Assembly: GCF_000015865.1 (NCBI RefSeq)
Contig: NC_009012.1
Coordinates: 372,001 to 436,000 of the forward strand
Source: Acetivibrio thermocellus ATCC 27405
GTDB taxonomy: Bacteria > Bacillota > Clostridia > Acetivibrionales > Acetivibrionaceae
Direction of reading: 5' to 3'
Length of the DNA stretch: 64,000 bases
The notes under the pieces are model-generated. The model made no database searches. It had not been told where the DNA came from and was given only the letters and a program-made list of their open reading frames with translations. Both the position numbers and the translations under genes were made by a program. This document shows, one piece after another, positions 48,777 through 60,826 of this stretch (the first letter of the stretch is position 1; each line of letters starts with the position of its first letter).

Positions 48777-49214
48777 ATGGTTGGAGTAGAAATTGATATG
48801 ATTGTGGCGGACAGTTTGAAAGCACTGGAATTGTACGAGAAAATATTTGATATTCAGCGTGTTGAGGCATCCAATCTTCCAAAAGGTGAAAATGAAGTTG
48901 TTTTTACTTTGTACGGAGTGCGCTTTCACATGCTGGACGAAAATCCGGAATTCGGTTTAAAAGCACCGGATCGTGACAGACCTAATACAATTTGGTTTAA
49001 CGTGTCGGTTCCTGATATTAAAGAAACATTTTCAAAGGCGATAAATGCGGGTTGCACAGAGATACAGCCGGCGACCGAAATGCCTGATTACGGATTGTCA
49101 AATGCCATATTTGCCGACCCTTTCGGATATCAATGGATGCTGCATCAAATACAAAGAGAAGTAAGTTTTGAAGAGCGCATTAGGCTTTGGGAGGATTCGC
49201 GCAAAGAAAAATAA
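48777..49214 (+). CDS. VOC (glyoxalase/bleomycin-resistance) superfamily protein
   Basis: 145 residues. Paired beta-alpha-beta-beta-beta modules are visible: VEIDMIVADSLKALELYEKI and the C-terminal FADPFGYQWMLHQI, the latter being the classic DPxGxxW VOC end. PhnB/YraH-like members are common; metal ligands and substrate are uncertain. ATG 48777 is used; an upstream GTG (48768) sits on the ribosome site GAGG. Confidence 0.85.
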   Translation: MVGVEIDMIVADSLKALELYEKIFDIQRVEASNLPKGENEVVFTLYGVRFHMLDENPEFGLKAPDRDRPNTIWFNVSVPDIKETFSKAINAGCTEIQPATEMPDYGLSNAIFADPFGYQWMLHQIQREVSFEERIRLWEDSRKEK

Positions 49215-49696
49215 ATTATTTCTAATATAATAATGCTAAAAATTAAAATGCTAAAATAATATTGAAAATATTTTTGTGAAGCAACCGGAAACGGTGATAT
49301 TGCCTTTTAATGAATACATGGAGATTAGGGACTTAAAACAAGAGTGTTTGGATAGATTTAAAAAATCAAAAGAGTGTTATTATTATCCGGCAGGAGACAT
49401 AAAGTTTTAATATACTCCTGCTTAATTTATATGTGAAAATGTGATAATATGATAATACAAATAGAATTATCGAATGAATAAAATAGATAAAGTATCATGC
49501 TTACAAACATAAGAAACTTGTAGAATAAGCTTGCAGATCAAACAAGTTTGACGCAGAAACTATTTAATTATACAGGAACATCTTGCTTTATTACATTATA
49601 ATATTTAAAAGAGGAATTTTGCTTTTGTTTATAGAATAATTCTATTAAAACTCGAAATAATCAACATAAAATATTGCATAAGGAGTTATAGGAGAT
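49215..49696. other. Intergenic region with a short gene remnant at 49276-49410
   Basis: A 44-codon frame (GTG 49276 to TAA 49408-49410) reads FNEYMEIRDLKQECLDRFKK followed by a YYY-proline segment. It looks more like a coding remnant than chance DNA because hydrophobic and charged residues alternate regularly and it ends cleanly, but I cannot name a family. No ribosome site is present. The rest is A+T-rich. Confidence 0.35.
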
Positions 49697-51370
49697 ATGA
49701 ATGAAAACAATCTAAATATGATTAAAGTGGTATTTCCGGATAACAGCGAAAGAGAAGTGTATGAAGGAATATCTTTGCAGGAATTGAGTGAAAGCTGCAA
49801 AAACCAATATAAATCAACCATTGTGGCGGCAAAGGTTAACAACGATATAAAGGAATTAAGCTATCGTCTTAATGAAAGTTGCCGGGTGGAGTTTATCGAC
49901 CTTACGGATGATGACGGAATGAGGATATATAAAAGAAGCCTCAGCTTTATTCTCATTAAGGCCGTAAATGACCTTTTTCCCGACAGAAAGGTTATAATTT
50001 GCCATTCCATCAGCAAGGGAATTTACTGTGAGGTTAAAGGCGACACACCTCTTACTGTTGAAGAGGTAGACATGATAAAAAACAGAATGAAAGAAATTGT
50101 CAATTTGAAAATTCCTTTCATAAAGAAGATAATGTCTCTTGATGAGGCAAGGGAAGTATTCAGAAAAATCGGAAGAATGGACAGGTTCCGTTCCATAGAA
50201 TACAGAAAAAAGCCCTATGTGACTTTATACGAATGCGATGGGTTCCAGGACTATTTTTATGGATATATGGTGCCTCATACGGGGTATCTGGATAAATTTG
50301 ATTTAAAATATTATCAGCCCGGCCTGATATTGATGAGTCCGGAAAAAACCAGTCCGGATGCTATACCGCAATTCAAAGAGCAAAAGAAGCTTTTCAGCAT
50401 ATTTGCGGAATACAAAAAATGGGGAAAAATACTTGGTGTCGAAGATGTGAGTGCGCTAAATGACATTGTAAAGGAAGGCAAAATAAATGAGCTTATAAGA
50501 GTTGCAGAGGCTTTGCATGAGAAGAAAATTGCGCAGATTGCGGATATGATAGCCTTTAATGAGCATAAGAAGAAAGTCGTTTTGATTGCCGGTCCGTCTT
50601 CATCGGGAAAGACAACCTTTGCCCACAGACTTTCGATACAGCTTAAGGTAAATGGTTTGAGGCCCGTTACCATATCTCTGGATGATTATTTTGTTGACAG
50701 GGAGCTTACTCCCAAGGATGAAAACGGAGAATACGACTTTGAGGCCCTGGAGGCTATTGATATCAAACTTTTCAACCGGCATCTTGCGGAGCTGATAGAA
50801 GGGAAAGAAGTTGACGTTCCGATTTTCAATTTCCCTAAAGGATGCAGGGAAAGCTTTTGCAGGAAGCTTAAGATTGACGAAGACCAGATAATCATAATTG
50901 AAGGCATACACGGATTGAATGAAAAACTGACGGCCTCAATTCCAAAAGAGAACAAATTCAAGATATATGTGAGCGCACTTACCTCAATGAATATTGATGA
51001 GCATAATCGTATACCTACTACGGATACACGAATCATCAGAAGGATTGTAAGAGATTACCAATTCAGAGGCTGCAGTGCGGCAAACACTATAAAACGCTGG
51101 CCTTCTGTAAGAAGGGGCGAGGAGAGAAACATATTCCCGTTCCAGGAAGAAGCGGATGTAATGTTTAATTCAGCGCTTATGTTTGAACTGGGAGTTTTAA
51201 AAACCTATGCGGAACCGCTGCTGATGGAGATAGATTCTTCTGAGCCTGAATATTCCGAGGCAAGGAGACTTATAGAATTTTTGAACAATTTCTTGCCGAT
51301 AGACTCGAAAGAGATTCCTGCAAATTCAATAATAAGGGAGTTTATTGGCGGAAGTTGTTTTTACCAGTAA
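49697..51370 (+). CDS. TGS-domain / uridine-kinase-family fusion protein
   Basis: 557 residues. Residues about 8-70 form a TGS-like beta-grasp domain (IKVVFPDNSEREVYEGISL), followed by a region resembling the ThrRS second additional domain (about 75-190). The kinase domain (about 295-490) has Walker A GPSSSGKTT and the uridine-kinase features SLDDYFVDRELTPKDENGEYD and EGIHGLNE. Known members are annotated as nucleoside kinase or phosphoribulokinase/uridine kinase family. The unusual TGS/SAD front suggests an RNA- or ribosome-related role; this is inference. A clear ribosome site (AAGGAGTTATAGGAG) precedes ATG 49697. Confidence 0.85.
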   Translation: MNENNLNMIKVVFPDNSEREVYEGISLQELSESCKNQYKSTIVAAKVNNDIKELSYRLNESCRVEFIDLTDDDGMRIYKRSLSFILIKAVNDLFPDRKVIICHSISKGIYCEVKGDTPLTVEEVDMIKNRMKEIVNLKIPFIKKIMSLDEAREVFRKIGRMDRFRSIEYRKKPYVTLYECDGFQDYFYGYMVPHTGYLDKFDLKYYQPGLILMSPEKTSPDAIPQFKEQKKLFSIFAEYKKWGKILGVEDVSALNDIVKEGKINELIRVAEALHEKKIAQIADMIAFNEHKKKVVLIAGPSSSGKTTFAHRLSIQLKVNGLRPVTISLDDYFVDRELTPKDENGEYDFEALEAIDIKLFNRHLAELIEGKEVDVPIFNFPKGCRESFCRKLKIDEDQIIIIEGIHGLNEKLTASIPKENKFKIYVSALTSMNIDEHNRIPTTDTRIIRRIVRDYQFRGCSAANTIKRWPSVRRGEERNIFPFQEEADVMFNSALMFELGVLKTYAEPLLMEIDSSEPEYSEARRLIEFLNNFLPIDSKEIPANSIIREFIGGSCFYQ

Positions 51371-51442
51371 ATAAACCGTAAATAAAGCATAAATAAAGTA
51401 TAGATAAAGCATGAATAAACCATAAATAATCGTAAATAACTG
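51368..51442. repeat. Seven phased 10-11-bp A/T-rich tandem repeats
   Basis: The units are TAAATAAACCG, TAAATAAAGCA, TAAATAAAGTA, TAGATAAAGCA, TGAATAAACCA, TAAATAATCG and TAAATAACTG, starting at the stop codon of the kinase gene. The period equals one DNA helical turn, with the A tracts in phase, so the stretch may be intrinsically bent. It stands 60 bases ahead of the DRTGG gene that opens the hydrogenase-linked cluster. Confidence 0.8.
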
Positions 51443-51502
51443 TTAATTGAAAACCATTAATAAATCTTGTTTGATACAAAATGTAAAGGTTAAGGTGTAT
51501 GT

Positions 51503-51856
51503 ATGAAGGCTAGGGAGATTTTAGAAATTTTAAATGCAGAACTTTTGACCGGGGAAGAAAATCTTGACATGGAGTTTAATGCAGCCTGTGGGTCAGACCT
51601 TATGAGCGATGTTATGGCCTATGTCAAAGAAAATGTGGTTTTGCTGACAGGGCTTGTCAATCCTCAGGTGATTAGGACTGCGGAAATGATGGATATAAAA
51701 TTGGTGGTTTTCATCAGGGGAAAGAGGCCCGAGGAGAAGATTATTCAAATGGCAAAAGAAAAAGGGATAGCAATCATGACCACGAACGACCCGATGTTTA
51801 TAGCATGCGGAAAGTTGTACAGTGCAGGTATAACAGAAAGAGGTGTTTGGGATTGA
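51503..51856 (+). CDS. DRTGG-domain protein, first gene of the HydS cluster
   Basis: 117 residues, a stand-alone DRTGG domain (EILEILNAELLTGEENLD, then DVMAYVKENVVLLTGLVNPQ and DIKLVVFIRGKRP). DRTGG domains are found beside CBS domains and in phosphotransacetylases, but their ligand is unknown. Its stop overlaps the start of the HATPase gene (TTGA), so translation is coupled. A second DRTGG gene lies three genes on (53667). The pair in a hydrogenase neighbourhood suggests a small-molecule or Fe-S regulatory role. Confidence 0.85.
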   Translation: MKAREILEILNAELLTGEENLDMEFNAACGSDLMSDVMAYVKENVVLLTGLVNPQVIRTAEMMDIKLVVFIRGKRPEEKIIQMAKEKGIAIMTTNDPMFIACGKLYSAGITERGVWD

Positions 51857-52302
51857 GTGACGGTATAATAAGGAAAAACTTTGTTATACCTGCAAATGAT
51901 TTTACATTGGCCGGGGAAGCATCAAGCACCGTAAAGAAGATGCTTATACAGCTTGGTGCTGATCCACAGAAAATAAAAAAGACGGCCATATCCATGTATG
52001 AGGCTGAATTGAACGCCGTCATTCACGCCAACGGCGGAGTGGCGGAAGTTGAAATTGACAGAAACAAAGTCTTTATACGGATAAAAGATGAAGGACCGGG
52101 AATACCTGATTTGGAGCTGGCAATGCAGGAAGGATATACCACTGCTCCGGACAGTATCCGTGAAATGGGGTTTGGTGCCGGAATGGGACTTCCCAATATG
52201 AAAAGATATGCTGACAAGCTTGAGATAATAACGGAAGTAGGAAAGGGGACTATTGTTGAGATTACCGTGTTTTTAACGGATAATGAGAAAGAGAACCATT
52301 AA
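51853..52302 (+). CDS. HATPase_c (GHKL) protein, anti-sigma/serine-kinase-like
   Basis: 149 residues, a lone GHKL ATPase domain of the RsbW/SpoIIAB type: N box YEAELNAVIHANGG, G1 DEGPGIPDLE and G2 GFGAGMGLPNMKRYAD. No histidine-kinase dimerisation domain is present. The frame extends back to 51805, but AAGAGGTG points to TTG 51853, overlapping the stop of the DRTGG gene. Such proteins phosphorylate or sequester partner proteins; the partner may be encoded in this cluster. Confidence 0.85.
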   Translation: MSDGIIRKNFVIPANDFTLAGEASSTVKKMLIQLGADPQKIKKTAISMYEAELNAVIHANGGVAEVEIDRNKVFIRIKDEGPGIPDLELAMQEGYTTAPDSIREMGFGAGMGLPNMKRYADKLEIITEVGKGTIVEITVFLTDNEKENH

Positions 52303-52320
52303 CGTGTTTGGGGGGATAAG

Positions 52321-53667
52321 ATGAGTCCGTACTTCCACTCGGTGACTCTGGACGAGGTCAAATGTAAAGGTTGTACCAATTGCATAAAAAGATGCCCCAC
52401 GGAAGCAATCAGAGTAAGAAAGAGCAAAGCCAGAATCATAAATGAAAGATGCATAGATTGCGGAGAGTGTATAAGGGTTTGTCCTTATCATGCCAAAAAG
52501 GCGATAACCGACCCTATTGGCCTGATAAATGACTATAAATACAAAGTTGCGATACCTGCCCCTTCCCTGTATGGACAGCTAAAGTCAGCGCCTTCAAGGG
52601 ATCATATCCTCACTGCTCTTAAAATGTGCGGATTTGACGATGTTTTTGAGGTTGCAAGGGCAGCCGAGATTATTACCAGTGAGACTAAAAAAATACTTGC
52701 ACAGCAAAGATTTGAAAAGCCCCTTATATCTTCAGCATGCCCTGCTGTAGTAAGGCTCATACAAGTGAGGTTTCCAAATCTTATCGATAATATATTAAAG
52801 CTAAAGTCCCCCATGGAGGTTGCGGCCAAAATCGCAAAAGATGAAATATCACGAAACAGGAAAATTCGCCAGGAGGACATCGGCGTATTTTTTATTACTC
52901 CCTGTGCCGCAAAAGTGACCAGCATAAAAGCTCCTTTGGACAAGGAGAAGTCCTTTGTGGACGGAGCAATTTCAATTTCGGAAATATATTTAAAAATACT
53001 TTCTGCCCTGGGGAAAATTGATAAACCTGAAAAGCTTTCAAGAGCCGGGTTTGTCGGAGTACGCTGGGCAAATTCCGGAGGAGAAAGCATCGCCCTTGGA
53101 ACGGACAAATTTCTTGCGGTTGACGGTATTCACAATGTAATTGCGATTCTTGAGGAAATTGAGGACGAAAAGCTGGAGGATATAGATTTTGTTGAAGCTC
53201 TGGCATGTCAGGGAGGCTGTCTTGGCGGTCCACTTAACGTGGAAAATATGTATGTTGCCAGAAAAACAATAAAGAAATTTATTGATGATGCAAAAGAAAA
53301 AGGGTTGGAAACGGCGGCAGACGAAAATTGCAATTATGATATTGCCTGGACGGGAAAGGTTGAATACAAACCTGTCATGAAGCTGGACAAGGATTTTGAC
53401 GTGGCAATGAAGAAGCTGGAGACTCTTAATGTCATAAACAGCGGACTTCCCGGACTGGATTGCGGTGCGTGCGGTGCACCGAGCTGCAGAGCCCTTGCGG
53501 AAGACATAGTAAGGGGGAATGCCAACGAGACGGATTGCATATTTAAACTGAGAGAAAAAGTAAGAGACCTTGCATTTCAGATGATGGAGCTGGAAGCAAA
53601 AATGCCTCCTGTGCTGGACAAGGATGAAACTTCGGAAAACAAATCAAAGAAAAGGGGAGAGTTTTGA
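52321..53667 (+). CDS. Putative sensory [FeFe]-hydrogenase-like protein (HydS type)
   Basis: 448 residues. Two 4Fe-4S motifs (CKGCTNCIKRCP, CIDCGECIRVCP; about 15-60) precede a hydrogenase large-subunit domain. The four H-cluster cysteines are present: Cys140 (SSACPAV), Cys195 (TPCAAK), Cys296 and Cys300 (ALACQGGCLGG). The proton-relay cysteine before Cys140 is Ala139, as in the sensory HydS of Thermotoga, and the GGGQP of catalytic enzymes is lost. The C-terminus carries a fourth Fe-S motif, CGACGAPSCRALAEDIVRG (about 380-400). It likely senses H2 or redox state instead of making H2. It overlaps the next DRTGG gene by one base. Confidence 0.88.
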   Translation: MSPYFHSVTLDEVKCKGCTNCIKRCPTEAIRVRKSKARIINERCIDCGECIRVCPYHAKKAITDPIGLINDYKYKVAIPAPSLYGQLKSAPSRDHILTALKMCGFDDVFEVARAAEIITSETKKILAQQRFEKPLISSACPAVVRLIQVRFPNLIDNILKLKSPMEVAAKIAKDEISRNRKIRQEDIGVFFITPCAAKVTSIKAPLDKEKSFVDGAISISEIYLKILSALGKIDKPEKLSRAGFVGVRWANSGGESIALGTDKFLAVDGIHNVIAILEEIEDEKLEDIDFVEALACQGGCLGGPLNVENMYVARKTIKKFIDDAKEKGLETAADENCNYDIAWTGKVEYKPVMKLDKDFDVAMKKLETLNVINSGLPGLDCGACGAPSCRALAEDIVRGNANETDCIFKLREKVRDLAFQMMELEAKMPPVLDKDETSENKSKKRGEF

Positions 53668-53996
53668 TGAAGGTTAAGGAGTTTGCAGAGCAGTTGAAAA
53701 TGGAGATATTAACCGGGGAAAAAGGACTTGAAAAAGAAATAAAGGGTATGTATATATGCGACCTTTTAAGTTGGGTTATGTCTCATGCTGCCAAAGGAGA
53801 TGCGTGGATTACGGTGCATACTCATGTCAATATTGTGGCAGTTGCTCTGATGGCCGACATACCTTGTATTATTATTCCCGAGGGTATTGAAGTGGAGGAG
53901 GCAACTATAAAAAAAGCTGTGGAAGAGGACATTGCAATATTGAGAACATCCAAAACCGCCTATCAAATAGCATGTGAAGCAGGTAAATTATTATGA
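53667..53996 (+). CDS. DRTGG-domain protein, second of the cluster
   Basis: 109 residues, similar in layout to the first (EFAEQLKMEILTGEKGLEKE, then DLLSWVMSHAAKGDAWITVH and DIPCIIIPEGIEV). ATG 53667 follows AAGGGGAGAG; the TGATG overlap with the HydS gene and the ATGA overlap with the PHP gene show one translational unit. The two DRTGG proteins may form a heteromer. Confidence 0.85.
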   Translation: MKVKEFAEQLKMEILTGEKGLEKEIKGMYICDLLSWVMSHAAKGDAWITVHTHVNIVAVALMADIPCIIIPEGIEVEEATIKKAVEEDIAILRTSKTAYQIACEAGKLL

Positions 53997-54703
53997 TAGT
54001 GTACACAGACCTTCATATTCATTCTGCATTATCTCCGTGCTCCGATAATGAGATGACACCCAACAATATTGTCAACATGGCCTTTCTCAAACAGCTTGAC
54101 ATTATTGCGGTGACCGATCACAATTCTGCCGAAAACTGTGTTGCAGTGGTCGAGTGTGCCAAAAAGAGAGGGATTGTTGCGGTTCCCGGAATGGAGCTTG
54201 AAACCAGGGAAGAGGTTCACCTTGTATGCCTTTTTCCGGGTATTGATGAGGCGCTTGACATGCAGAAGATAGTATATAATGCACTCCCGGACATAAAAAA
54301 TCGGGAAGACATATTTGGAGAGCAAATTGTAATGGATGCCGGGGATAATGTTTTAAGGCATGTGGACAGACTTCTTTTGACTGCATCAAATCTTAGCGTT
54401 GAAGATGTGTTCAGCCATGTTGCGGCATTGGGAGGTGTTGTTATACCTGCCCATGTGGACCGAGATTCTTACAGTATTATTTCAAATCTTGGAATCATTC
54501 CTGAAAATCCTGAAATAAAATATCTCGAAATCTCAAAATTCTGCGACAAAACGAAATATCTTGAGAAAAACCCCCATCTTGGAAGATTTAATTTTATCAG
54601 ATCTTCTGATGCCCATTCATTGGGCGACATTCTGGAAAGGGAAAATTCTATTGAACTTGAGGAAATAAGCATAGAATGCCTTATTGAGACGTTAAAAAAG
54701 TGA
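53993..54703 (+). CDS. PHP-domain phosphoesterase
   Basis: 236 residues. The metal-binding PHP motifs are complete: DLHIHSALSPCSDNEMTP near the N-terminus, VTDHNSAEN, the Glu in PGMELETREEVH, PAHVDRDS and SSDAHSLGD. PHP enzymes hydrolyse phosphoesters, including nucleotides or phosphorylated metabolites. As the last gene of the HydS unit it could degrade a signalling nucleotide; this is inference. ATG overlaps the previous stop. Confidence 0.85.
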   Translation: MIVYTDLHIHSALSPCSDNEMTPNNIVNMAFLKQLDIIAVTDHNSAENCVAVVECAKKRGIVAVPGMELETREEVHLVCLFPGIDEALDMQKIVYNALPDIKNREDIFGEQIVMDAGDNVLRHVDRLLLTASNLSVEDVFSHVAALGGVVIPAHVDRDSYSIISNLGIIPENPEIKYLEISKFCDKTKYLEKNPHLGRFNFIRSSDAHSLGDILERENSIELEEISIECLIETLKK

Positions 54704-54859
54704 TAAGGCATTGTTAGACCATATATTGCATATGACATTTCATTAGGATACTGTATACAATTCAACGGTGCCGTTCTGACCTCTTGGATTTCCCGGAAAT
54801 CTTGATGATAAAAGCATTTGAAACTGTCATCAGAACATTAAAAGTAATACTAAAATGTA

Positions 54860-54888
54860 TTGAATAATGTATAAATATTTGATATAAT
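54860..54888 (+). promoter_or_regulatory. Sigma-A promoter of the hydrogenase operon
   Basis: TTGAAT at 54860-54865, 17 bases, TATAAT at 54883-54888. Expected start near 54895, within the Rex-type operator. Confidence 0.8.
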
Positions 54889-54898
54889 TAAGGCGATA

Positions 54899-54916
54899 TT
54901 GTTAAATTGTTAACAT
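54899..54916. promoter_or_regulatory. Rex-type operator at the hydrogenase promoter
   Basis: TTGTTAA (54899-54905), ATTG, TTAACAT (54910-54916) match the clostridial Rex consensus TTGTTAANNNNTTAACAA with a single mismatch at the last base. It begins 10 bases after the -10 box, where a bound repressor would block initiation. Rex releases DNA when NADH rises, which would induce H2 production to reoxidise NADH. Confidence 0.8.
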
Positions 54917-54964
54917 GCGTTTTGAAAGTGAAATCAAACGTCTGGTTAGGGGGTTATTAAAGAA

Positions 54965-55462
54965 ATGAGCGCAAATGGTTGCTGCTGTTGCGGCGGAGTA
55001 GACTCCAGAGAACAAAAACTTAACGAAATAATTGAAAAATACAAAAACACAAAAGGAGCGCTTGTTCCTGTTCTTCATGAAGCACAGGAAGTATATGGTT
55101 ATTTGCCTCTGGAGGTTCAGAAAAAAATTGCTGAAGGGCTTAACATACCTTTGGCTGAAGTTTACGGTGTTGTAACATTCTATACCCAGTTTTCCTTGAA
55201 TCCAAAAGGAAAATATAAAATCCAGGTTTGCATGGGTACTGCATGTTATGTAAAAGGATCCGGAGCTATTTTGGAAAAGCTTAAAGAAAAGCTTGAGATT
55301 GATGTTGGCGAATGCACCAGTGACGGCAAGTTTTCTTTGGAAGCTTGCAGATGTATAGGAGCTTGTGGATTGGCCCCGGTAATAATGATTAACGACGATG
55401 TATACGGCAGACTTGTACCTGATGATATAGAAGGGATAATTGAAAAGTATAAGAAAGAATGA
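54965..55462 (+). CDS. hydC: [FeFe]-hydrogenase subunit HydC (NuoE-like, 2Fe-2S)
   Basis: 165 residues. A Cys-rich start (GCCCCGG) is followed by the NuoE-type thioredoxin-like fold: EVYGVVTFYTQFSLNPKGK, then the 2Fe-2S ligands in CMGTACYVKG and EACRCIGACGLAPV. HydC docks to HydB in trimeric bifurcating hydrogenases and in NADH dehydrogenases. AGGGGG ribosome site 12 bases ahead. Its ATGA end overlaps the HATPase gene. Confidence 0.92.
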   Translation: MSANGCCCCGGVDSREQKLNEIIEKYKNTKGALVPVLHEAQEVYGYLPLEVQKKIAEGLNIPLAEVYGVVTFYTQFSLNPKGKYKIQVCMGTACYVKGSGAILEKLKEKLEIDVGECTSDGKFSLEACRCIGACGLAPVIMINDDVYGRLVPDDIEGIIEKYKKE

Positions 55463-56025
55463 GAGACTTATCTTTGCATTTGATGGATATAGTTCAAAAC
55501 TCGATAGATGCTAAAGCAAGCAAAATCAGCATTTTAATATGTGCTGATAAGAAGTCGGATCTTTTGGAAATTGAAGTAAAAGACAATGGTATTGGAATGG
55601 ACAGCGATTTTCTGAAAGAGGTTGTCAATCCTTTTACCACTACAAGGGACACAAGAAGAGTGGGTCTTGGAATTCCGCTTTTGAAAGCGTCTGCAAAAAG
55701 AGCTTCAGGTGATCTTGAAATTACATCTGAAAAACTCGTCGGTACTACGGTTAAAGCAAGCTTCAAAATATCCCACATAGATCGGCTTCCGTTGGGAAAT
55801 CTGGCTCAGACCATGGAAAGTCTTATTGTTGCACGACCTGACATTGAATACGACCTTACTCTTGACAACAAAAAGGAAAGATTTATTTTCAACTCCTTTG
55901 AAATAAAAAGGAGAATCGGAGAAGTTCCGTTAACTCATTTTGAAGTGCTAAAGTGGATTGGCGAGTATGTAAATGATGGTGTAAAGACTATTTTTGGAGG
56001 GATATTAGATGAAATCCTTGGCTGA
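55459..56025 (+). CDS. HATPase_c (GHKL) protein inside the hyd operon
   Basis: 188 residues. GHKL motifs are intact: N box HLMDIVQNSIDA, G1 DNGIGMD and G2 RRVGLGIPLLKASAKRASG. The C-terminal 80 residues (DRLPLGNLAQTMESLIVARPD) are a separate helical part without a familiar motif. It is translationally coupled to hydC (ATGA) and overlaps the next gene by 17 bases. It resembles the second HATPase of this region (51853) only in the ATPase core. A regulatory kinase of the hydrogenase or of a co-regulator is likely but unproven. Confidence 0.85.
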   Translation: MRDLSLHLMDIVQNSIDAKASKISILICADKKSDLLEIEVKDNGIGMDSDFLKEVVNPFTTTRDTRRVGLGIPLLKASAKRASGDLEITSEKLVGTTVKASFKISHIDRLPLGNLAQTMESLIVARPDIEYDLTLDNKKERFIFNSFEIKRRIGEVPLTHFEVLKWIGEYVNDGVKTIFGGILDEILG

Positions 56026-56377
56026 ATTAGAAGAAATAAGAAAGAGGACTCTTGATCAAATAAATTTGAGGACCAGCAATCATGACATCAGAGTTGTTGT
56101 GGGTATGGCCACATGTGGTATCGCTGCCGGAGCAAGACCGGTTATGAATGCGTTTGTTGAAGAATTAAACAAGAGGAATTTGACCAATGTAGCGGTTACT
56201 ATGACAGGATGTATCGGAATGTGTAAACTTGAACCTATTGTTGAGGTAATTGACAAGGACGGCAGCAAGGTAACATATGTAAAAATGACTCCTGAAAAGG
56301 TTGCCCGTGTTGTTGCTGAGCACATAGTCAATGGAAGGGTATGTACTGAGTATACCATCGCAGAGGCGGACAAATAG
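56009..56377 (+). CDS. Thioredoxin-like [2Fe-2S] ferredoxin
   Basis: 122 residues. The thioredoxin-like 2Fe-2S ferredoxin fold has four cysteines: two in the CGIAAGARPV/TGCIGMCKLE stretches and the pattern expected for NuoE/HydB N-terminal domains. It probably acts as an electron carrier or as an extra docking module between HydC and HydB. It overlaps the HATPase gene by 17 bases and is followed by hydB after 32 bases. Confidence 0.85.
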   Translation: MKSLAELEEIRKRTLDQINLRTSNHDIRVVVGMATCGIAAGARPVMNAFVEELNKRNLTNVAVTMTGCIGMCKLEPIVEVIDKDGSKVTYVKMTPEKVARVVAEHIVNGRVCTEYTIAEADK

Positions 56378-56409
56378 TTAGTTTCGATTTTTGTTAAGGA
56401 GGGTTATAA

Positions 56410-58203
56410 ATGCAATTATATAGAGCACATGTTCTGGTTTGTGGAGGTACAGGCTGTACTTCATCAAACTCCAATAAGATAATCACTGAATTGGAAGAAC
56501 AAATTGCCAGAAACGGTATACAGAATGAAGTAAAAGTTGTAAGAACCGGATGCTTTGGACTTTGCGCCGAAGGCCCGATTATGGTGGTTTATCCTGAAGG
56601 TGCAATGTATACAATGGTCAAAGTTGAAGATGTGAAAGAGATAGTTGAGGAGCATCTGGTAAAAGGAAGAATTGTAAAAAGACTTCTTCCAGGCGGCGGT
56701 GGCAAGGATGAAAAAGCTTCCCTTGAAGGCAATGACTTCTTTGCAAAGCAGCAAAGAATTGCGTTAAGAAACTGCGGTGTTATAAATCCTGAAAATATTG
56801 ACGAATATATTGCTTTTGACGGATATAAGGCATTGGCAAAAGTATTGACTGAAATGACTCCCGAACAAGTTGTTGATGTTATTAAAAGATCCGGTTTGAG
56901 AGGAAGAGGGGGCGGAGGTTTCCCTACCGGACTTAAATGGGAGTTTGCAATGAAACAGGATGCAGACCAGAAATATGTTTGCTGTAATGCCGACGAGGGA
57001 GACCCGGGAGCATTCATGGACAGAAGTGTCCTTGAAGGAGACCCTCATTCTGTAATTGAAGCTATGGCGATTGCAGGTTATGCCATAGGCGCAAATCAGG
57101 GATATGTTTATGTAAGAGCGGAATACCCGATTGCCGTAAAGAGGCTTGGCATTGCCATTCAGCAGGCAAGAGAATATGGACTTTTGGGTAAAAACATATT
57201 TGGAACGGACTTTAGCTTTGATGTTGATATAAGGCTTGGAGCAGGTGCTTTTGTGTGCGGTGAGGAAACAGCTCTCATGACGTCCATAGAGGGACACAGG
57301 GGAGAGCCAAGACCAAGGCCTCCGTTCCCTGCGGTAAAAGGTTTGTGGCAAAAGCCGACTTTGCTGAATAACGTTGAGACTTATGCAAACATTCCCCAGA
57401 TTATTCTGAAAGGTCCCGAATGGTTTGCAAGCATTGGTACTGAAAAGAGTAAAGGTACCAAAGTATTTGCGGTGGGCGGTAAAATTAACAATACAGGTTT
57501 GGTAGAAATTCCTATGGGTACAACTTTGAGAGAGGTTATTTATGACATAGGAGGAGGAATACCGAACGGCAAGAAGTTCAAAGCAGCCCAGACCGGAGGT
57601 CCTTCCGGAGGATGTATTCCTGCAAGCCATATTGATACGCCAATTGACTATGATTCATTAACCCAGTTGGGCTCAATGATGGGTTCCGGCGGACTTATAA
57701 TCATGGATGAAGACACATGTATGGTTGACATTGCAAAGTTCTTCCTTGAATTTACTGTTGACGAATCCTGCGGTAAGTGTCCGCCGTGCCGTATAGGAAC
57801 AAAGAGAATGTATGAGATTCTTGAAAGGATTACTGAAGGCAAGGGAGAAGAAGGGGACATTGAAAAGCTGGAGATGCTTGCAAAGAATATAAAGGCATCG
57901 GCTTTGTGCGGACTGGGTCAGACAGCTCCGAATCCTATTCTCAGTACTTTAAGATACTTCAGGCATGAATATATTGAGCACGTAAGGGATAAGAAGTGTG
58001 CCGCAGGGGTTTGCAAGGCGTTGATGCATTATGAAATAGATGCTGAGAAATGTAAGAGCTGCGGAATATGCGCAAGACAATGTCCTGTAAAAGCAATAAG
58101 CGGAGAAAAGAAGGTTCCGTACGTTATAGATCAGAACAAATGTATCAAATGTGGCGTTTGTATGGAGAAATGTCCGTTCAAGGCCATTTCCAAAAAAGCC
58201 TAA
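56410..58203 (+). CDS. hydB: [FeFe]-hydrogenase subunit HydB (NuoF-like, FMN/NADH site)
   Basis: 597 residues. N-terminal 2Fe-2S thioredoxin-like domain (about 1-95), then the NuoF core: NADH/FMN loop GRGGGGFPTGLKWEF, CNADEGDPGAFMDR, and the 4Fe-4S site ESCGKCPPCRIG. Two further 4Fe-4S motifs lie at the C-terminus (CKSCGICARQCP, CIKCGVCMEKCP). It splits electrons between NADH and ferredoxin in the bifurcating complex. GGAGGG ribosome site. Confidence 0.95.
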   Translation: MQLYRAHVLVCGGTGCTSSNSNKIITELEEQIARNGIQNEVKVVRTGCFGLCAEGPIMVVYPEGAMYTMVKVEDVKEIVEEHLVKGRIVKRLLPGGGGKDEKASLEGNDFFAKQQRIALRNCGVINPENIDEYIAFDGYKALAKVLTEMTPEQVVDVIKRSGLRGRGGGGFPTGLKWEFAMKQDADQKYVCCNADEGDPGAFMDRSVLEGDPHSVIEAMAIAGYAIGANQGYVYVRAEYPIAVKRLGIAIQQAREYGLLGKNIFGTDFSFDVDIRLGAGAFVCGEETALMTSIEGHRGEPRPRPPFPAVKGLWQKPTLLNNVETYANIPQIILKGPEWFASIGTEKSKGTKVFAVGGKINNTGLVEIPMGTTLREVIYDIGGGIPNGKKFKAAQTGGPSGGCIPASHIDTPIDYDSLTQLGSMMGSGGLIIMDEDTCMVDIAKFFLEFTVDESCGKCPPCRIGTKRMYEILERITEGKGEEGDIEKLEMLAKNIKASALCGLGQTAPNPILSTLRYFRHEYIEHVRDKKCAAGVCKALMHYEIDAEKCKSCGICARQCPVKAISGEKKVPYVIDQNKCIKCGVCMEKCPFKAISKKA

Positions 58204-58222
58204 TGGAAGGGGATGTGAAAAG

Positions 58223-59971
58223 ATGCAAATGGTAAATGTTACTATAGATAATTGCAAGATACAGGTACCTGCCAATTATACCGTGTTGGAAGCTGCAAAA
58301 CAGGCTAACATAGACATACCTACTCTTTGCTTCCTCAAGGATATAAATGAAGTAGGTGCCTGCCGTATGTGCGTTGTTGAGGTAAAAGGTGCCAGAAGCT
58401 TACAGGCGGCCTGTGTATATCCGGTGTCCGAAGGTCTTGAGGTGTACACTCAGACACCGGCGGTAAGGGAAGCCAGGAAAGTGACTTTGGAACTTATACT
58501 GTCAAACCATGAAAAGAAATGTTTGACCTGTGTAAGAAGTGAAAACTGCGAATTGCAAAGACTGGCAAAAGATCTGAATGTAAAAGATATCAGATTTGAA
58601 GGTGAAATGAGCAATTTGCCGATAGATGATCTTTCGCCTTCTGTTGTAAGGGATCCCAACAAGTGTGTTTTGTGCAGACGCTGTGTCAGCATGTGCAAGA
58701 ATGTTCAGACCGTTGGAGCCATTGATGTTACTGAAAGAGGATTCCGTACCACCGTATCAACGGCCTTTAACAAACCTCTCAGTGAAGTACCCTGCGTAAA
58801 CTGCGGACAGTGTATCAATGTATGTCCTGTGGGAGCATTGAGAGAAAAGGACGATATTGACAAGGTTTGGGAAGCTCTTGCAAATCCTGAGCTTCATGTA
58901 GTCGTTCAGACGGCTCCTGCAGTCAGGGTTGCATTGGGAGAAGAGTTTGGAATGCCTATCGGCTCAAGAGTGACCGGTAAAATGGTGGCAGCATTGAGTC
59001 GACTGGGCTTTAAAAAGGTATTTGATACAGATACGGCTGCCGACCTTACAATAATGGAGGAAGGTACTGAGCTTATAAACAGGATTAAAAACGGCGGCAA
59101 GCTTCCTTTGATAACTTCCTGCAGCCCGGGATGGATAAAGTTCTGCGAACACAACTATCCTGAGTTTTTAGACAATCTGTCCAGCTGCAAATCGCCTCAC
59201 GAAATGTTTGGTGCGGTTTTGAAATCCTACTATGCACAGAAAAACGGAATTGATCCTTCAAAAGTATTTGTTGTATCAATAATGCCATGTACGGCAAAGA
59301 AGTTTGAGGCTCAAAGGCCGGAGCTTTCTTCAACGGGTTATCCTGATGTGGATGTTGTTCTTACCACAAGAGAGCTTGCAAGAATGATAAAAGAAACGGG
59401 TATTGATTTTAATTCCCTTCCGGATAAACAGTTTGATGATCCTATGGGTGAGGCATCCGGAGCAGGTGTTATTTTTGGTGCCACCGGAGGAGTTATGGAG
59501 GCTGCCATCAGGACCGTCGGTGAATTATTGAGCGGCAAACCTGCAGACAAGATTGAATATACTGAGGTAAGAGGTCTTGACGGTATAAAAGAGGCTTCCA
59601 TAGAACTTGACGGTTTTACTCTGAAGGCTGCTGTTGCCCATGGTCTTGGCAACGCAAGAAAGCTTCTTGACAAAATAAAAGCCGGAGAGGCGGATTATCA
59701 TTTCATTGAAATAATGGCCTGTCCCGGTGGTTGTATAAACGGTGGAGGACAGCCCATACAGCCGTCATCTGTGAGAAACTGGAAAGATATAAGATGCGAG
59801 AGGGCGAAAGCTATTTACGAAGAGGATGAGTCCTTGCCTATAAGAAAATCTCATGAAAATCCAAAGATAAAGATGCTGTATGAAGAATTCTTTGGTGAAC
59901 CGGGCAGTCATAAAGCTCACGAGCTTTTGCACACTCATTATGAGAAGAGGGAAAACTACCCTGTTAAATGA
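58223..59971 (+). CDS. hydA: [FeFe]-hydrogenase catalytic subunit HydA
   Basis: 582 residues from ATG 58223, after AAGGGGATGTGAAAAG; the frame extends back to 58151 without a site. N-terminal 2Fe-2S domain (CRMCVVEVKG), a His-ligated cluster (HEKKCLTC...CEL), two 4Fe-4S sites (CVLCRRCVSMCKN, CVNCGQCINVCP) and the H-cluster domain. Cluster motifs are TSCSPGW (Cys300, with Ser301 where classic enzymes have a second Cys), MPCTAKK (Cys356) and MACPGGC with GGGQP (Cys500, Cys504). Together with HydB and HydC it makes H2 from NADH plus reduced ferredoxin. Confidence 0.95.
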   Translation: MQMVNVTIDNCKIQVPANYTVLEAAKQANIDIPTLCFLKDINEVGACRMCVVEVKGARSLQAACVYPVSEGLEVYTQTPAVREARKVTLELILSNHEKKCLTCVRSENCELQRLAKDLNVKDIRFEGEMSNLPIDDLSPSVVRDPNKCVLCRRCVSMCKNVQTVGAIDVTERGFRTTVSTAFNKPLSEVPCVNCGQCINVCPVGALREKDDIDKVWEALANPELHVVVQTAPAVRVALGEEFGMPIGSRVTGKMVAALSRLGFKKVFDTDTAADLTIMEEGTELINRIKNGGKLPLITSCSPGWIKFCEHNYPEFLDNLSSCKSPHEMFGAVLKSYYAQKNGIDPSKVFVVSIMPCTAKKFEAQRPELSSTGYPDVDVVLTTRELARMIKETGIDFNSLPDKQFDDPMGEASGAGVIFGATGGVMEAAIRTVGELLSGKPADKIEYTEVRGLDGIKEASIELDGFTLKAAVAHGLGNARKLLDKIKAGEADYHFIEIMACPGGCINGGGQPIQPSSVRNWKDIRCERAKAIYEEDESLPIRKSHENPKIKMLYEEFFGEPGSHKAHELLHTHYEKRENYPVK

Positions 59972-60058
59972 GTTTAAAATAAACAGGAAAACTTAAGAAA
60001 ACGGGAAACTATTTCCTGTTGAGAATGTGAAATTAAATGATAAAAAGTGATATAATAG

Positions 60059-60087
60059 GGTCAGGCGTACAGAAGCCTGACCTTTTT
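60059..60087 (+). terminator. Terminator of the hydrogenase operon
   Basis: Eight-base stem GGTCAGGC (60059-60066) and GCCTGACC (60075-60082) with an eight-base loop and TTTTT. A weaker hairpin (AACAGGAAA/TTTCCTGTT, 59982-60020) lies just upstream. Confidence 0.88.
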
Positions 60088-60223
60088 GCAAAATTGTTTT
60101 ATTGGCGCGGCGTATATATACAGCATATATACAATGTAAATTTATACAATCAAATTGTTGATACAATCGAATTATGCGGCTAAAAATTTGCTGCAAAAAA
60201 ATTAATATAAAAGAGGTAGGAAA

Positions 60224-60826
60224 ATGGCAAAACAACTTTGGAAACCGTCTACTATATTAAATCCGGTTCCGGTTGTAATGGTAAGCTGTTGCGGCAGAGA
60301 GGGAAAGCCCAATATAATTACTGTCGCATGGGCCGGAACAATTAATTCAAAACCTCCTATGGTTTCAATATCCATAAGGAAAGAGCGGTATTCCTATAAT
60401 CTAATAAAGGAAAAAGGACAGTTTGTAATAAATCTTACAACCAGAAAGCTGGCATTTGCCGCTGATTTTTGCGGTGTAAAGTCCGGCAGGGATGTTGATA
60501 AGTTTGAAGTTCTCAAGCTGACACAGGAGAAGGCCTCTGTAGTGGATGTACCAATGATAAAGGAAAGTCCTGTGAATATTGAATGCACGGTGAAGGATAT
60601 AATTGAATTGGGCTCTCATGACATGTTCATAGCACAGATTGAAGCCGTAAGTGTGGATGAATCCCTTATTGACAAGAAAGGGAGGCTGTGCATGGAGAAA
60701 GCGGATCTTATATGCTATTCCCATGGAGAATACTGGTCTTTGGAAAAGACATTGGGATATTTTGGATATTCGATAACCAAAAGAAAAGAGGTTTTAAAAA
60801 GGAGATTAAATAAAAAAGACAGGTAA
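60224..60826 (+). CDS. Flavin-reductase-like (flavoredoxin) protein
   Basis: 200 residues. The FMN-binding split-barrel of the flavin-reductase/flavoredoxin family is clear: ILNPVPVVMVSCCGREGKPN, TVAWAGTINSKPPMVSISIR and FVINLTTRKLAFAADFCGVKSG. Its role is probably electron transfer with bound FMN. AGAGGTAGGAAA ribosome site. It lies next to the hydrogenase operon but has its own transcription unit, since the terminator at 60059-60087 separates them. Confidence 0.88.
   Translation: MAKQLWKPSTILNPVPVVMVSCCGREGKPNIITVAWAGTINSKPPMVSISIRKERYSYNLIKEKGQFVINLTTRKLAFAADFCGVKSGRDVDKFEVLKLTQEKASVVDVPMIKESPVNIECTVKDIIELGSHDMFIAQIEAVSVDESLIDKKGRLCMEKADLICYSHGEYWSLEKTLGYFGYSITKRKEVLKRRLNKKDR

What the first reader, a model, noticed from the sequence alone, without database searches (positions are those of the whole stretch)
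51503..54703. Five-gene HydS-centred sensing module next to the bifurcating hydrogenase
DRTGG, HATPase, HydS-like hydrogenase, DRTGG and PHP phosphoesterase form one unit; four of the junctions overlap or nearly touch. Two DRTGG domains and a lone GHKL ATPase flank a hydrogenase domain that keeps all four H-cluster cysteines but has Ala at the proton-relay position. A sensor (HydS), an ATPase or protein kinase and a phosphoesterase together look like a signalling pathway for H2 or redox state. The ligand of DRTGG and the PHP substrate are unknown. Parts of the set are known in clostridia, but how they work together is, to my knowledge, not described.
Basis: partly seen in the sequence, partly recalled or inferred. 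Interest (0 to 1): 0.75.

Follow-up and report, generated by a model that had tools for sequence, protein, structure and literature searches.

The report
Swappable-sensor switch for hydrogen enzymes
Beside a hydrogen-making enzyme, this bacterium carries a small, widely conserved set of signalling-type genes whose sensor is usually an altered hydrogenase but in some relatives is a different, nucleotide-type sensor, which suggests a plug-in control unit for how anaerobes handle surplus electrons.

Summary
In detail: DRTGG-A, a SpoIIAB/RsbW-like ATPase (K), a group D (M2e) HydS, DRTGG-B and a PHP protein form one unit. It is strongly conserved: of 121 non-duplicate group D HydS loci with both flanks, 101 have all five genes, and K lies upstream of HydS in 129 of 131. 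In 398 sampled genomes HydS and a DRTGG-A-type protein co-occur in 156, with 5 HydS-only and 12 DRTGG-only. Natural fusions A~K, K~S, S~B and PHP~HATP2 suggest a physical assembly and add a sixth member, HATP2, the ATPase encoded inside the hyd operon.

HydS is not the fixed centre. In 8 loci of 6 genomes it is absent and K carries a tandem CBS domain; one such locus still sits on hydABC, others beside Rnf. Best reading: a plug-in kinase module with an interchangeable sensor (H-cluster or CBS) that tunes ferredoxin/NAD enzymes. The biochemistry is untested. A Ser invariant in both DRTGG types (145/145, 135/135) is the candidate phosphosite.

Group D HydS upstream of hydABC is already in print; in my searches the DRTGG/PHP set, fusions and CBS swap were not found. 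PHP is dispensable; AlphaFold fusion models do not settle interfaces.

The parts
51503..51856 (+). DRTGG-A (117 aa); conserved D32-x-x-S35 and T49
   Evidence: Pfam PF07085 36.6 bits; alignment A2; S35 145/145, D32 143/145
51853..52302 (+). K: SpoIIAB/RsbW-like GHKL ATPase, probable protein kinase (149 aa, TTG start); no HisKA domain
   Evidence: Pfam HATPase_c 48.1 and HATPase_c_2 42.5 bits, no HisKA; best NCBIfam model spIIAB, under its cut-off; only SpoIIAB in PDB at E<=1e-6; E50, N54, D79, G81, G83, G106, G110, G112 153/153
52321..53667 (+). HydS, group D/M2e [FeFe] hydrogenase (448 aa): 2x[4Fe-4S], H-cluster domain, C-terminal 4-Cys FeS, Ala139 at the proton-relay position
   Evidence: probably the Cthe_0335 of PMC3561251 Table 6 (match of name to gene inferred from order)
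53667..53996 (+). DRTGG-B (109 aa from ATG 53667; TTG 53664 possible)
   Evidence: Pfam PF07085 33.0 and Hpr_kinase_N 31.1 bits; alignment A3; S36 135/135 (counted from the TTG start)
53993..54703 (+). PHP-domain phosphoesterase (236 aa) with the full metal-ligand set H8 H10 D42 H43 E68 H76 H154 D206 H208
   Evidence: Pfam PF02811 37.1 bits; the nine positions invariant in 125 or 127 sequences (the ligand roles are recalled)
54883..54888 (+). -10-like TATAAT of a possible separate hyd-operon promoter (-35-like TTGAAT at 54860)
   Evidence: consensus match only (24 found in the region, 21.6 expected)
54899..54916 (+). Rex-type operator TTGTTAAATTGTTAACAT just below that box
   Evidence: one mismatch to the recalled consensus, 0.05 expected per window
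54965..55462 (+). NuoE-like 2Fe-2S subunit of the bifurcating hydrogenase
   Evidence: Pfam PF01257
55459..56025 (+). HATP2: second GHKL protein, proposed sixth member of the module
   Evidence: Pfam HATPase_c 56.1 bits; follows PHP directly in variants without HydS; fused to PHP in L170, L173, L185
56009..56377 (+). 2Fe-2S ferredoxin-like subunit (Fd2)
   Evidence: label from sequence, gene order and relatives, not scanned with Pfam
56410..58203 (+). HydB (NuoF-like, FMN and NADH site)
   Evidence: Pfam Complex1_51K 155.5 bits
58151..59971 (+). HydA (group A-type catalytic subunit; ORF as listed, true start probably about 58223)
   Evidence: weaker match to the HydS profile at this place

Best explanation
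The five genes plus HATP2 encode a physically coupled, plug-in signalling module. Its core is a SpoIIAB/RsbW-type GHKL protein (K) working with one or two small DRTGG proteins. A sensor feeds K: usually HydS, which would read H2 and/or ferredoxin redox state at an H-cluster without the normal proton relay; in some lineages a tandem CBS domain fused to K, which would read adenine nucleotides. K then changes the state of the DRTGG proteins, most simply by phosphorylating the invariant Ser in D-x-x-S; PHP, where present, reverses or trims this. The output reaches the ferredoxin/NAD+ machine encoded alongside (HydABC, or Rnf in variants), perhaps through HATP2. SHOWN by sequence: conservation, gene order, fusions, sensor swap, intact catalytic residues, predicted folds. 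INFERRED: direct contact, direction of signalling, phosphorylation, ligands, target.
For: Co-occurrence 156 both / 5 HydS only / 12 DRTGG only / 225 neither of 398 genomes. K upstream of HydS in 129 of 131 and DRTGG-B downstream in 117 of 128 non-duplicate loci. Fusions read in sequence: A~K in 7 loci of 3 families, K~S in 2 genera, S~B in 2 genera, PHP~HATP2 in 3 genera. Sensor swap: A - CBS2~K - B - PHP - HATP2 without HydS in L102, L104, L107, L110, L115, L226; in L226 this stands in front of hydABC itself. CBS pair and HydS together in 3 genomes (L179, L228, L229). For the 5 loci with K-S and no DRTGG nearby, A-B-PHP-HATP2 lies elsewhere in the same genome, 5 of 5. All 21 variant genomes tested keep [FeFe] hydrogenases, so HydS loss is not loss of H2 metabolism. 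RnfC lies within about 10 kb of the module in 9 of those 21; no rnf genes were found in the flanks of the 35 named HydS loci, 24 of which reach 8 kb on both sides. A predicted A~K fusion finds SpoIIAB and the DRTGG protein AF1212 as nearest folds of its two domains. K's Glu50, Asn54 and G-box residues are 153/153; the D-x-x-S Ser is 145/145 and 135/135.
Against: No STAS protein, sigma factor or known substrate is among the eight proteins scanned at the locus. A module-type PHP is absent from 7 genomes that keep HydS. DRTGG-A is missing close to HydS in 12 of 131 loci (one of these, L060, has it further upstream behind an interrupted CBS-K gene, L228), and K in 2 of 131 (L162, L166), where S-B precedes Fd2-NuoE-HydB-HydA. 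Some of the DRTGG-A-type genome hits at 1e-15 are really DRTGG-B (for example G005, G018, G136, G162). AlphaFold models of two natural fusions give good domains but no settled orientation (pTM 0.63 and 0.74). The invariant Ser may be structural. The sampled genomes are related, so counts are not independent events; the K tree (138 columns) does not prove how often CBS was gained or lost. Rex-type sites already offer redox control of hydABC transcription.
Confidence: 0.5

Rival explanations
1. Transcriptional control: K is an anti-sigma-type factor, or acts on a response regulator, and HydS releases it so that hydABC or other redox genes are transcribed.
For: Closest solved relatives of K are SpoIIAB, then RsbW in the fold search. 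In the four f86 genomes read (G126, G156, G182, G256) K-S lies next to an OmpR-type response regulator and a HisKA-type histidine kinase, and in G368 next to an OmpR-type regulator.
Against: No sigma factor, STAS antagonist or DNA-binding domain among the eight proteins scanned at the window locus. 116 of 121 HydS loci have at least one DRTGG close by; the other five are the ones seen in the regulator context. A Rex-type site stands before hyd.
Confidence: 0.2
2. Assembly or maturation factor: the ATPases, DRTGG proteins and HydS act as a scaffold or chaperone that builds or activates HydABC rather than sensing anything.
For: HATP2 is encoded inside the hyd operon; in f30 a bare S-B pair leads Fd2-NuoE-HydB-HydA.
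Against: The module also stands without hydABC within the fetched flanks (L006-L010, L018, L023, L034, L036) and near Rnf, which has no H-cluster. A CBS pair is an odd substitute for a maturation scaffold.
Confidence: 0.15
3. Second-messenger pathway: PHP makes or destroys a nucleotide that the DRTGG or CBS domains bind.
For: PHP residues fully conserved; nearest solved PHP relatives, all weak, are a 5'-3' exoribonuclease, endonuclease Q and phosphoesterases. The CBS/DRTGG region of a pyrophosphatase was crystallised with AMP and Ap4A (title in the reference list of PMC13039410).
Against: The module's PHP is lost from 7 genomes that keep HydS and a DRTGG. Neither window DRTGG has the literal DRTGG residues.
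Confidence: 0.1
4. Loose operon companionship: the genes share expression but no mechanism.
For: Single members are dispensable in some lineages.
Against: Four different neighbour fusions, and the same set kept together at loci without hydABC nearby.
Confidence: 0.05

Closest known systems
Group D (M2e) [FeFe] hydrogenase, TamHydS and Cthe_0335
   Same: Same kind of protein: no PAS, C-terminal FeS cluster, proton-relay Cys replaced, encoded upstream of bifurcating HydABC; PMC8163306 (passages) names a histidine kinase-like ATPase next to it.
   Different: That paper names the other neighbour an AraC-family regulator; in 117 of 128 loci with enough downstream sequence a DRTGG-B gene lies there, so the label is probably a misannotation (inference; the TamHydS locus itself was not identified by name). 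The words DRTGG, HATPase and PHP do not occur in that paper's text (term search).
Group C sensory HydS with SpoIIE-type phosphatase, e.g. the second sensory hydrogenase of this genome (L223)
   Same: Sensory-type hydrogenase beside a second hyd set, with a protein phosphatase gene (SpoIIE).
   Different: Longer protein (571 aa frame). PAS domains are named for this type in PMC3561251 but Pfam found none at 1e-5 here. PP2C-type gene instead of SpoIIAB-like kinase plus DRTGG and PHP.
SpoIIAB/RsbW partner switching
   Same: Best sequence and fold relatives of K; general-base Glu and ATP boxes kept (roles recalled).
   Different: No STAS partner or sigma factor among the proteins scanned; DRTGG proteins stand where the antagonist would be; the sensor is a hydrogenase or CBS pair.
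CBS-DRTGG regulatory region of family II pyrophosphatase; N-terminal domain of HPr kinase
   Same: DRTGG fold (2ioj, 3l2b); DRTGG-B scores above the Pfam cut-off for Hpr_kinase_N; CBS and DRTGG occur together.
   Different: Here the DRTGG are separate small proteins with an invariant D-x-x-S that AF1212 does not clearly share. The HPr kinase structure hit (1ko7) has rmsd 18.9 and is not a clean match.

Membership tests
Group D/M2e [FeFe] hydrogenase | Two N-terminal [4Fe-4S] motifs, H-cluster Cys, C-terminal 4-Cys FeS | tested here: met
   8 N-terminal Cys 148/148 rows (includes two group C rows and duplicates); H-cluster Cys 141/141, C-terminal Cys 140-141/141 (includes the two group C rows)
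Group D/M2e [FeFe] hydrogenase | No PAS domain | tested here: met
   No PAS match at E<=0.1 in the window protein
Group D/M2e [FeFe] hydrogenase | Proton-relay Cys replaced | tested here: met
   A139; no Cys in 139 group D rows
Group D/M2e [FeFe] hydrogenase | H2 conversion or sensory behaviour | not testable with these tools
   Needs purified protein
SpoIIAB/RsbW anti-sigma kinase | GHKL fold with ATP boxes and general-base Glu | tested here: met
   (fold of a relative)
SpoIIAB/RsbW anti-sigma kinase | Curated spIIAB cut-off of NCBIfam | tested here: not met
   62.5 bits against 135
SpoIIAB/RsbW anti-sigma kinase | STAS antagonist and sigma factor encoded with it | tested here: not met
   None among the eight proteins scanned at the locus
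Two-component histidine kinase | HisKA/DHp phosphoacceptor domain | tested here: not met
   K has HATPase matches only
DRTGG domain (PF07085) | Pfam gathering score and fold | tested here: met
   36.6 and 33.0 bits against 25.2; 2ioj TM 0.79 for a relative of DRTGG-A
DRTGG domain (PF07085) | Literal DRTGG residues | tested here: not met
   Not present in either window sequence
PHP phosphoesterase | Nine-residue metal site (recalled) | tested here: met
   Invariant in 125 or 127 sequences; Pfam 37.1 against 26.4
PHP phosphoesterase | Substrate | not testable with these tools
   No curated NCBIfam model reached its cut-off

The most novel reading that the evidence does not exclude
A new class of bacterial phospho-switch in which two small DRTGG proteins replace the STAS partner of a SpoIIAB-like kinase and a PHP enzyme replaces the PP2C phosphatase. 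Its sensor is interchangeable (a proton-relay-less hydrogenase reading H2/ferredoxin, or a CBS pair reading adenylates), and it gates the cell's ferredoxin/NAD+ machines, HydABC or Rnf, at protein level.
Probability: 0.22. Interest if true: 0.85.

Novelty: new variant of a known kind. Interest (0 to 1): 0.62.

Why it matters
How a sensory [FeFe] hydrogenase passes on its signal is an open question stated in print (PMC8163306, passages). The conserved partners, the natural fusions and the exchange of HydS for a CBS pair name a likely receiver (K with DRTGG) and give ready-made single-chain proteins for biochemistry. If right, it explains how anaerobes match electron disposal (H2, ethanol, Rnf ion pumping) to redox and energy state, which bears on biofuel strains.

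Tried and rejected
Histidine-kinase reading of K: rejected, no HisKA domain. Loss of HydS as a mere loss of H2 metabolism: rejected, 21 of 21 variant genomes keep [FeFe] hydrogenases. HydS as a dead H-cluster protein: not supported, no row of 141 lacks an H-cluster Cys, though split or decayed copies under 350 model positions were left out. Structured RNA at window 49000-60500: none at Rfam gathering scores. Promoter and terminator scans were at chance level. AlphaFold of natural A~K and K~S fusions to find interfaces: domains good, orientation unsettled. K tree for the number of sensor swaps: 5 changes for CBS and 7 for HydS, but starred branches force as little as 1 for CBS-only; suggestive only (94 of 152 K domains used: 24 with another state or an A~K fusion, plus the first 70 of 108 left after an 85% identity filter). 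PHP as an essential member: rejected. Literature: seven searches ran (one search was malformed). Calusinska et al. 2010, which I take (by recall) to be the reference that PMC3561251 cites for the kinase neighbour, is not held, so an earlier gene map of the whole unit cannot be excluded.

Rows dropped before counts: L038-L041 (ferredoxin-only hits); two group C hits in L031/L032 (they are still in the 148 rows and the 141, where they are the two rows with Cys at 139); HydS hits spanning under 350 model positions, among them the split or decayed ones of L105, L114, L151 and L117; loci with short flanks. On rechecking I replaced my earlier Ser counts (201 and 172, where the two DRTGG profiles shared sequences) by counts with each sequence given to its best profile (145 and 135).
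Full report
WHAT IS THERE. The window lies in a one-contig genome of 3,843,301 bases. From its size and gene order I take it to be Clostridium (Acetivibrio) thermocellum ATCC 27405 (recalled; no call names it). In PMC3561251, Table 6 (passages), Cthe_0335 is a group D M2e sensory hydrogenase and Cthe_0340-0342 a bifurcating one; the gene order here fits (inference). Gaps are -4, +18, -1 and -4 bases. The family search found two DRTGG domains in the genome, both here.

THE PROTEINS. K is a bare GHKL domain. Its best curated model is spIIAB, well under its cut-off (62.5 of 135 bits). Its only PDB relatives at E<=1e-6 are SpoIIAB, and a predicted model of a natural A~K fusion finds SpoIIAB, then RsbW among others, as its nearest folds, with the DRTGG protein AF1212 (2ioj) at TM 0.79. 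There is no HisKA domain. E50, N54, H58 and the G boxes are invariant or nearly so over 153 sequences; that E50 is the general base is by analogy with SpoIIAB (recalled). HydS has all 16 cluster Cys; in 139 group D rows the H-cluster Cys never vary and the proton-relay position is A 101, S 32, T 3 and single others, never Cys. PHP keeps all nine recalled metal ligands in 125 or 127 sequences. DRTGG-A and -B share D-x-x-S; with each sequence given to its best profile the Ser is 145/145 and 135/135 and the Asp 143/145 and 135/135. A Ser at that place is not clearly shared by AF1212.

CONSERVATION. A genome-contig scan gave 39 loci, 35 of them real HydS in Bacillota records. Of the 35, 29 have all five genes on the same strand in order; two are cut by contig ends and four (L028-L030, L035) have only DRTGG-A, K and HydS. 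In two of the 29 an extra gene-sized gap lies inside the unit (L019, L026), and in L003 the PHP frame is split. In a 398-genome sample of the phylum, HydS (E<=1e-50) is in 161 and DRTGG-A-type (E<=1e-15) in 168: both 156, HydS only 5, DRTGG only 12, neither 225. The sample is phylogenetically related, so the Fisher value (2e-88) overstates independence, and some hits at 1e-15 are DRTGG-B. I then read the neighbourhoods of part of the hits: 30 loci, 20 regions, 80, and some. After removing duplicates and two group C hits there are 138 group D HydS loci. K is upstream in 129 of 131, DRTGG-A in 119 of 131, DRTGG-B downstream in 117 of 128, PHP in 109 of 128, and all five in 101 of 121.

FUSIONS. 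Open frames that carry two neighbours: A~K in L069, L070, L071, L122, L189 (f99), L128 (f48), L187 (f78); K~S in L224 and L225 (two genera of f115); S~B in L125 and L137 (two genera of f44); PHP~HATP2 in L170, L173, L185 (three genera of f23); HATP2~Fd2 in L133. So A, K, S and B are linked in a chain of fusions, and PHP to HATP2. HATP2 is the second GHKL gene, which in the window lies in the hyd operon (55459-56025).

SENSOR SWAP. In 8 loci of 6 genomes (L102, L103, L104, L106, L107, L110, L115, L226) HydS is absent and K carries an N-terminal tandem CBS domain. Pfam confirms two CBS stretches in L102, L104, L106, L110 and L226, and in the HydS-bearing L179 and L229; L103, L107, L115 and L228 rest on my own CBS profile. 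Six of the eight read A - CBS2~K - B - PHP - HATP2; L103 and L106 read A - CBS2~K - Fd2, followed by RnfC. In L226 the CBS form stands in front of a full hydABC set without HydS. Three genomes have CBS2~K and HydS together (L179, L228, L229). In G387 and G304 a HydS locus (A-K-S) and a CBS locus (A-CBS2~K-B-PHP-HATP2) coexist. All 21 variant genomes tested keep [FeFe] hydrogenases. RnfC lies within about 10 kb of the module in 9 of these 21 (G117, G321, G039, G150, G037, G009, G159, G036, G340). No rnf gene, apart from the resemblance of HydS itself to RnfB, was found in the flanks of the 35 named HydS loci; 24 of them reach 8 kb on both sides.

SPLIT MODULES. Five K-S loci with both flanks have no DRTGG beside them (L061, L126, L160, L161, L181). 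Their genomes (G156, G126, G256, G182, G368) each carry A-B-PHP-HATP2 at another place (L193, L111, L113, L112, L116). There K-S adjoins an OmpR-type regulator, with a HisKA histidine kinase in the four f86 genomes. In L028-L030 and L035 the locus is A-K-S and the module-type PHP lies elsewhere in the genome. In G390, G252, G276, G343, G178, G233 and G388 only weak, partial PHP matches are found, or none, so PHP is dispensable. In f30 a second HydS locus is S-B-Fd2-NuoE-HydB-HydA without K or A.

REGULATION IN CIS. A Rex-type operator with one mismatch to the recalled consensus lies at 54899-54916, just below a -10-like box before the hyd operon (0.05 expected per window). Boxes with at most two mismatches occur within 300 bases upstream of NuoE in 17 of 103 loci (0.8 expected) and of DRTGG-A in 6 of 160 (1.05 expected), among them a perfect one in L006. 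The expectation there is from letter shuffles, and close relatives, the window's own locus included, are counted. Module and hyd operon may therefore have separate promoters, and Rex is an independent redox input.

MECHANISM. The steadiest pair is DRTGG plus K; what varies is the input (HydS or CBS pair) and the neighbour served (HydABC or Rnf). The simplest reading is a kinase whose activity is set by a sensor and whose small partners are the DRTGG proteins, with HATP2 and, where kept, PHP in the return path or output. Direction of signalling, phosphorylation, ligand and target are inference. The AlphaFold models of the A~K and K~S fusions have good domains (pLDDT 87 and 89) but pTM 0.63 and 0.74, so they show no settled interface.

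WHAT IS KNOWN. That sensory hydrogenases, M2e included, usually lie upstream of trimeric bifurcating hydrogenases, often separated by a histidine/serine kinase, is in PMC3561251 (passages). [quoted passage not shown] The 2026 study of TamHydS does not mention operon, DRTGG, kinase, PHP, gene cluster or phosphatase (term search in its text). A figure legend in PMC12003927 lists valS, fpgS, spoIIAB and rsxB beside hyd genes (passage). Only one held paper has both DRTGG and hydrogenase, and its DRTGG passage is about another protein, DVU3031. The older survey (Calusinska 2010) is not held.

VERDICT. A real, widely conserved and modular unit built of known domains. The sensor exchange and the fusion chain are the new and testable points; the biochemistry is open.

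Noticed in passing
window 55459-56025: HATP2, a second GHKL protein inside the hyd operon, has Asp instead of Glu at the place of the general base (D10, 103/104) and follows or fuses to PHP in relatives.
   Followed up: partly
window 54899-54916: Rex-type operator at the hyd promoter; similar boxes upstream of DRTGG-A in L006, L009, L010, L012.
   Followed up: yes
L223 5985-12943 (G000:C1 about 535-542 kb): The same genome has a second sensory-type hydrogenase (571-aa frame) followed by a SpoIIE-type phosphatase gene and another NuoE-HydB-HydA set.
   Followed up: partly
L126 434-2377, L192 534-2450: In two f86 genomes a roughly 640-aa protein with partial HydS and Fe_hyd_lg_C similarity follows K-S; it looks like a further, unusual hydrogenase-like protein.
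   Followed up: no
L162, L166, L171 (L230-L232): HydS copies in f30 with S-B directly before Fd2-NuoE-HydB-HydA, without K or DRTGG-A.
   Followed up: partly
L117 10071-11427: Only fragments of HydS and PHP remain beside an intact hydABC set, K missing; looks like a decaying module.
   Followed up: no
L105 8161-9575, L114 10076-11454: HydS split over two open frames in G001 and G091; frameshift or assembly error not resolved.
   Followed up: no
L228 5092-7655: A CBS2~K gene appears interrupted by an opposite-strand 395-aa frame between DRTGG-A and K, a possible insertion.
   Followed up: no
L119 11637-12584: Multihaem cytochrome gene between an A-K pair and the rnf genes in f47.
   Followed up: no
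window 49697-51370: TGS/uridine-kinase-like gene upstream of the unit, also directly upstream in L003-L005 and a little further off in L008-L010.
   Followed up: no
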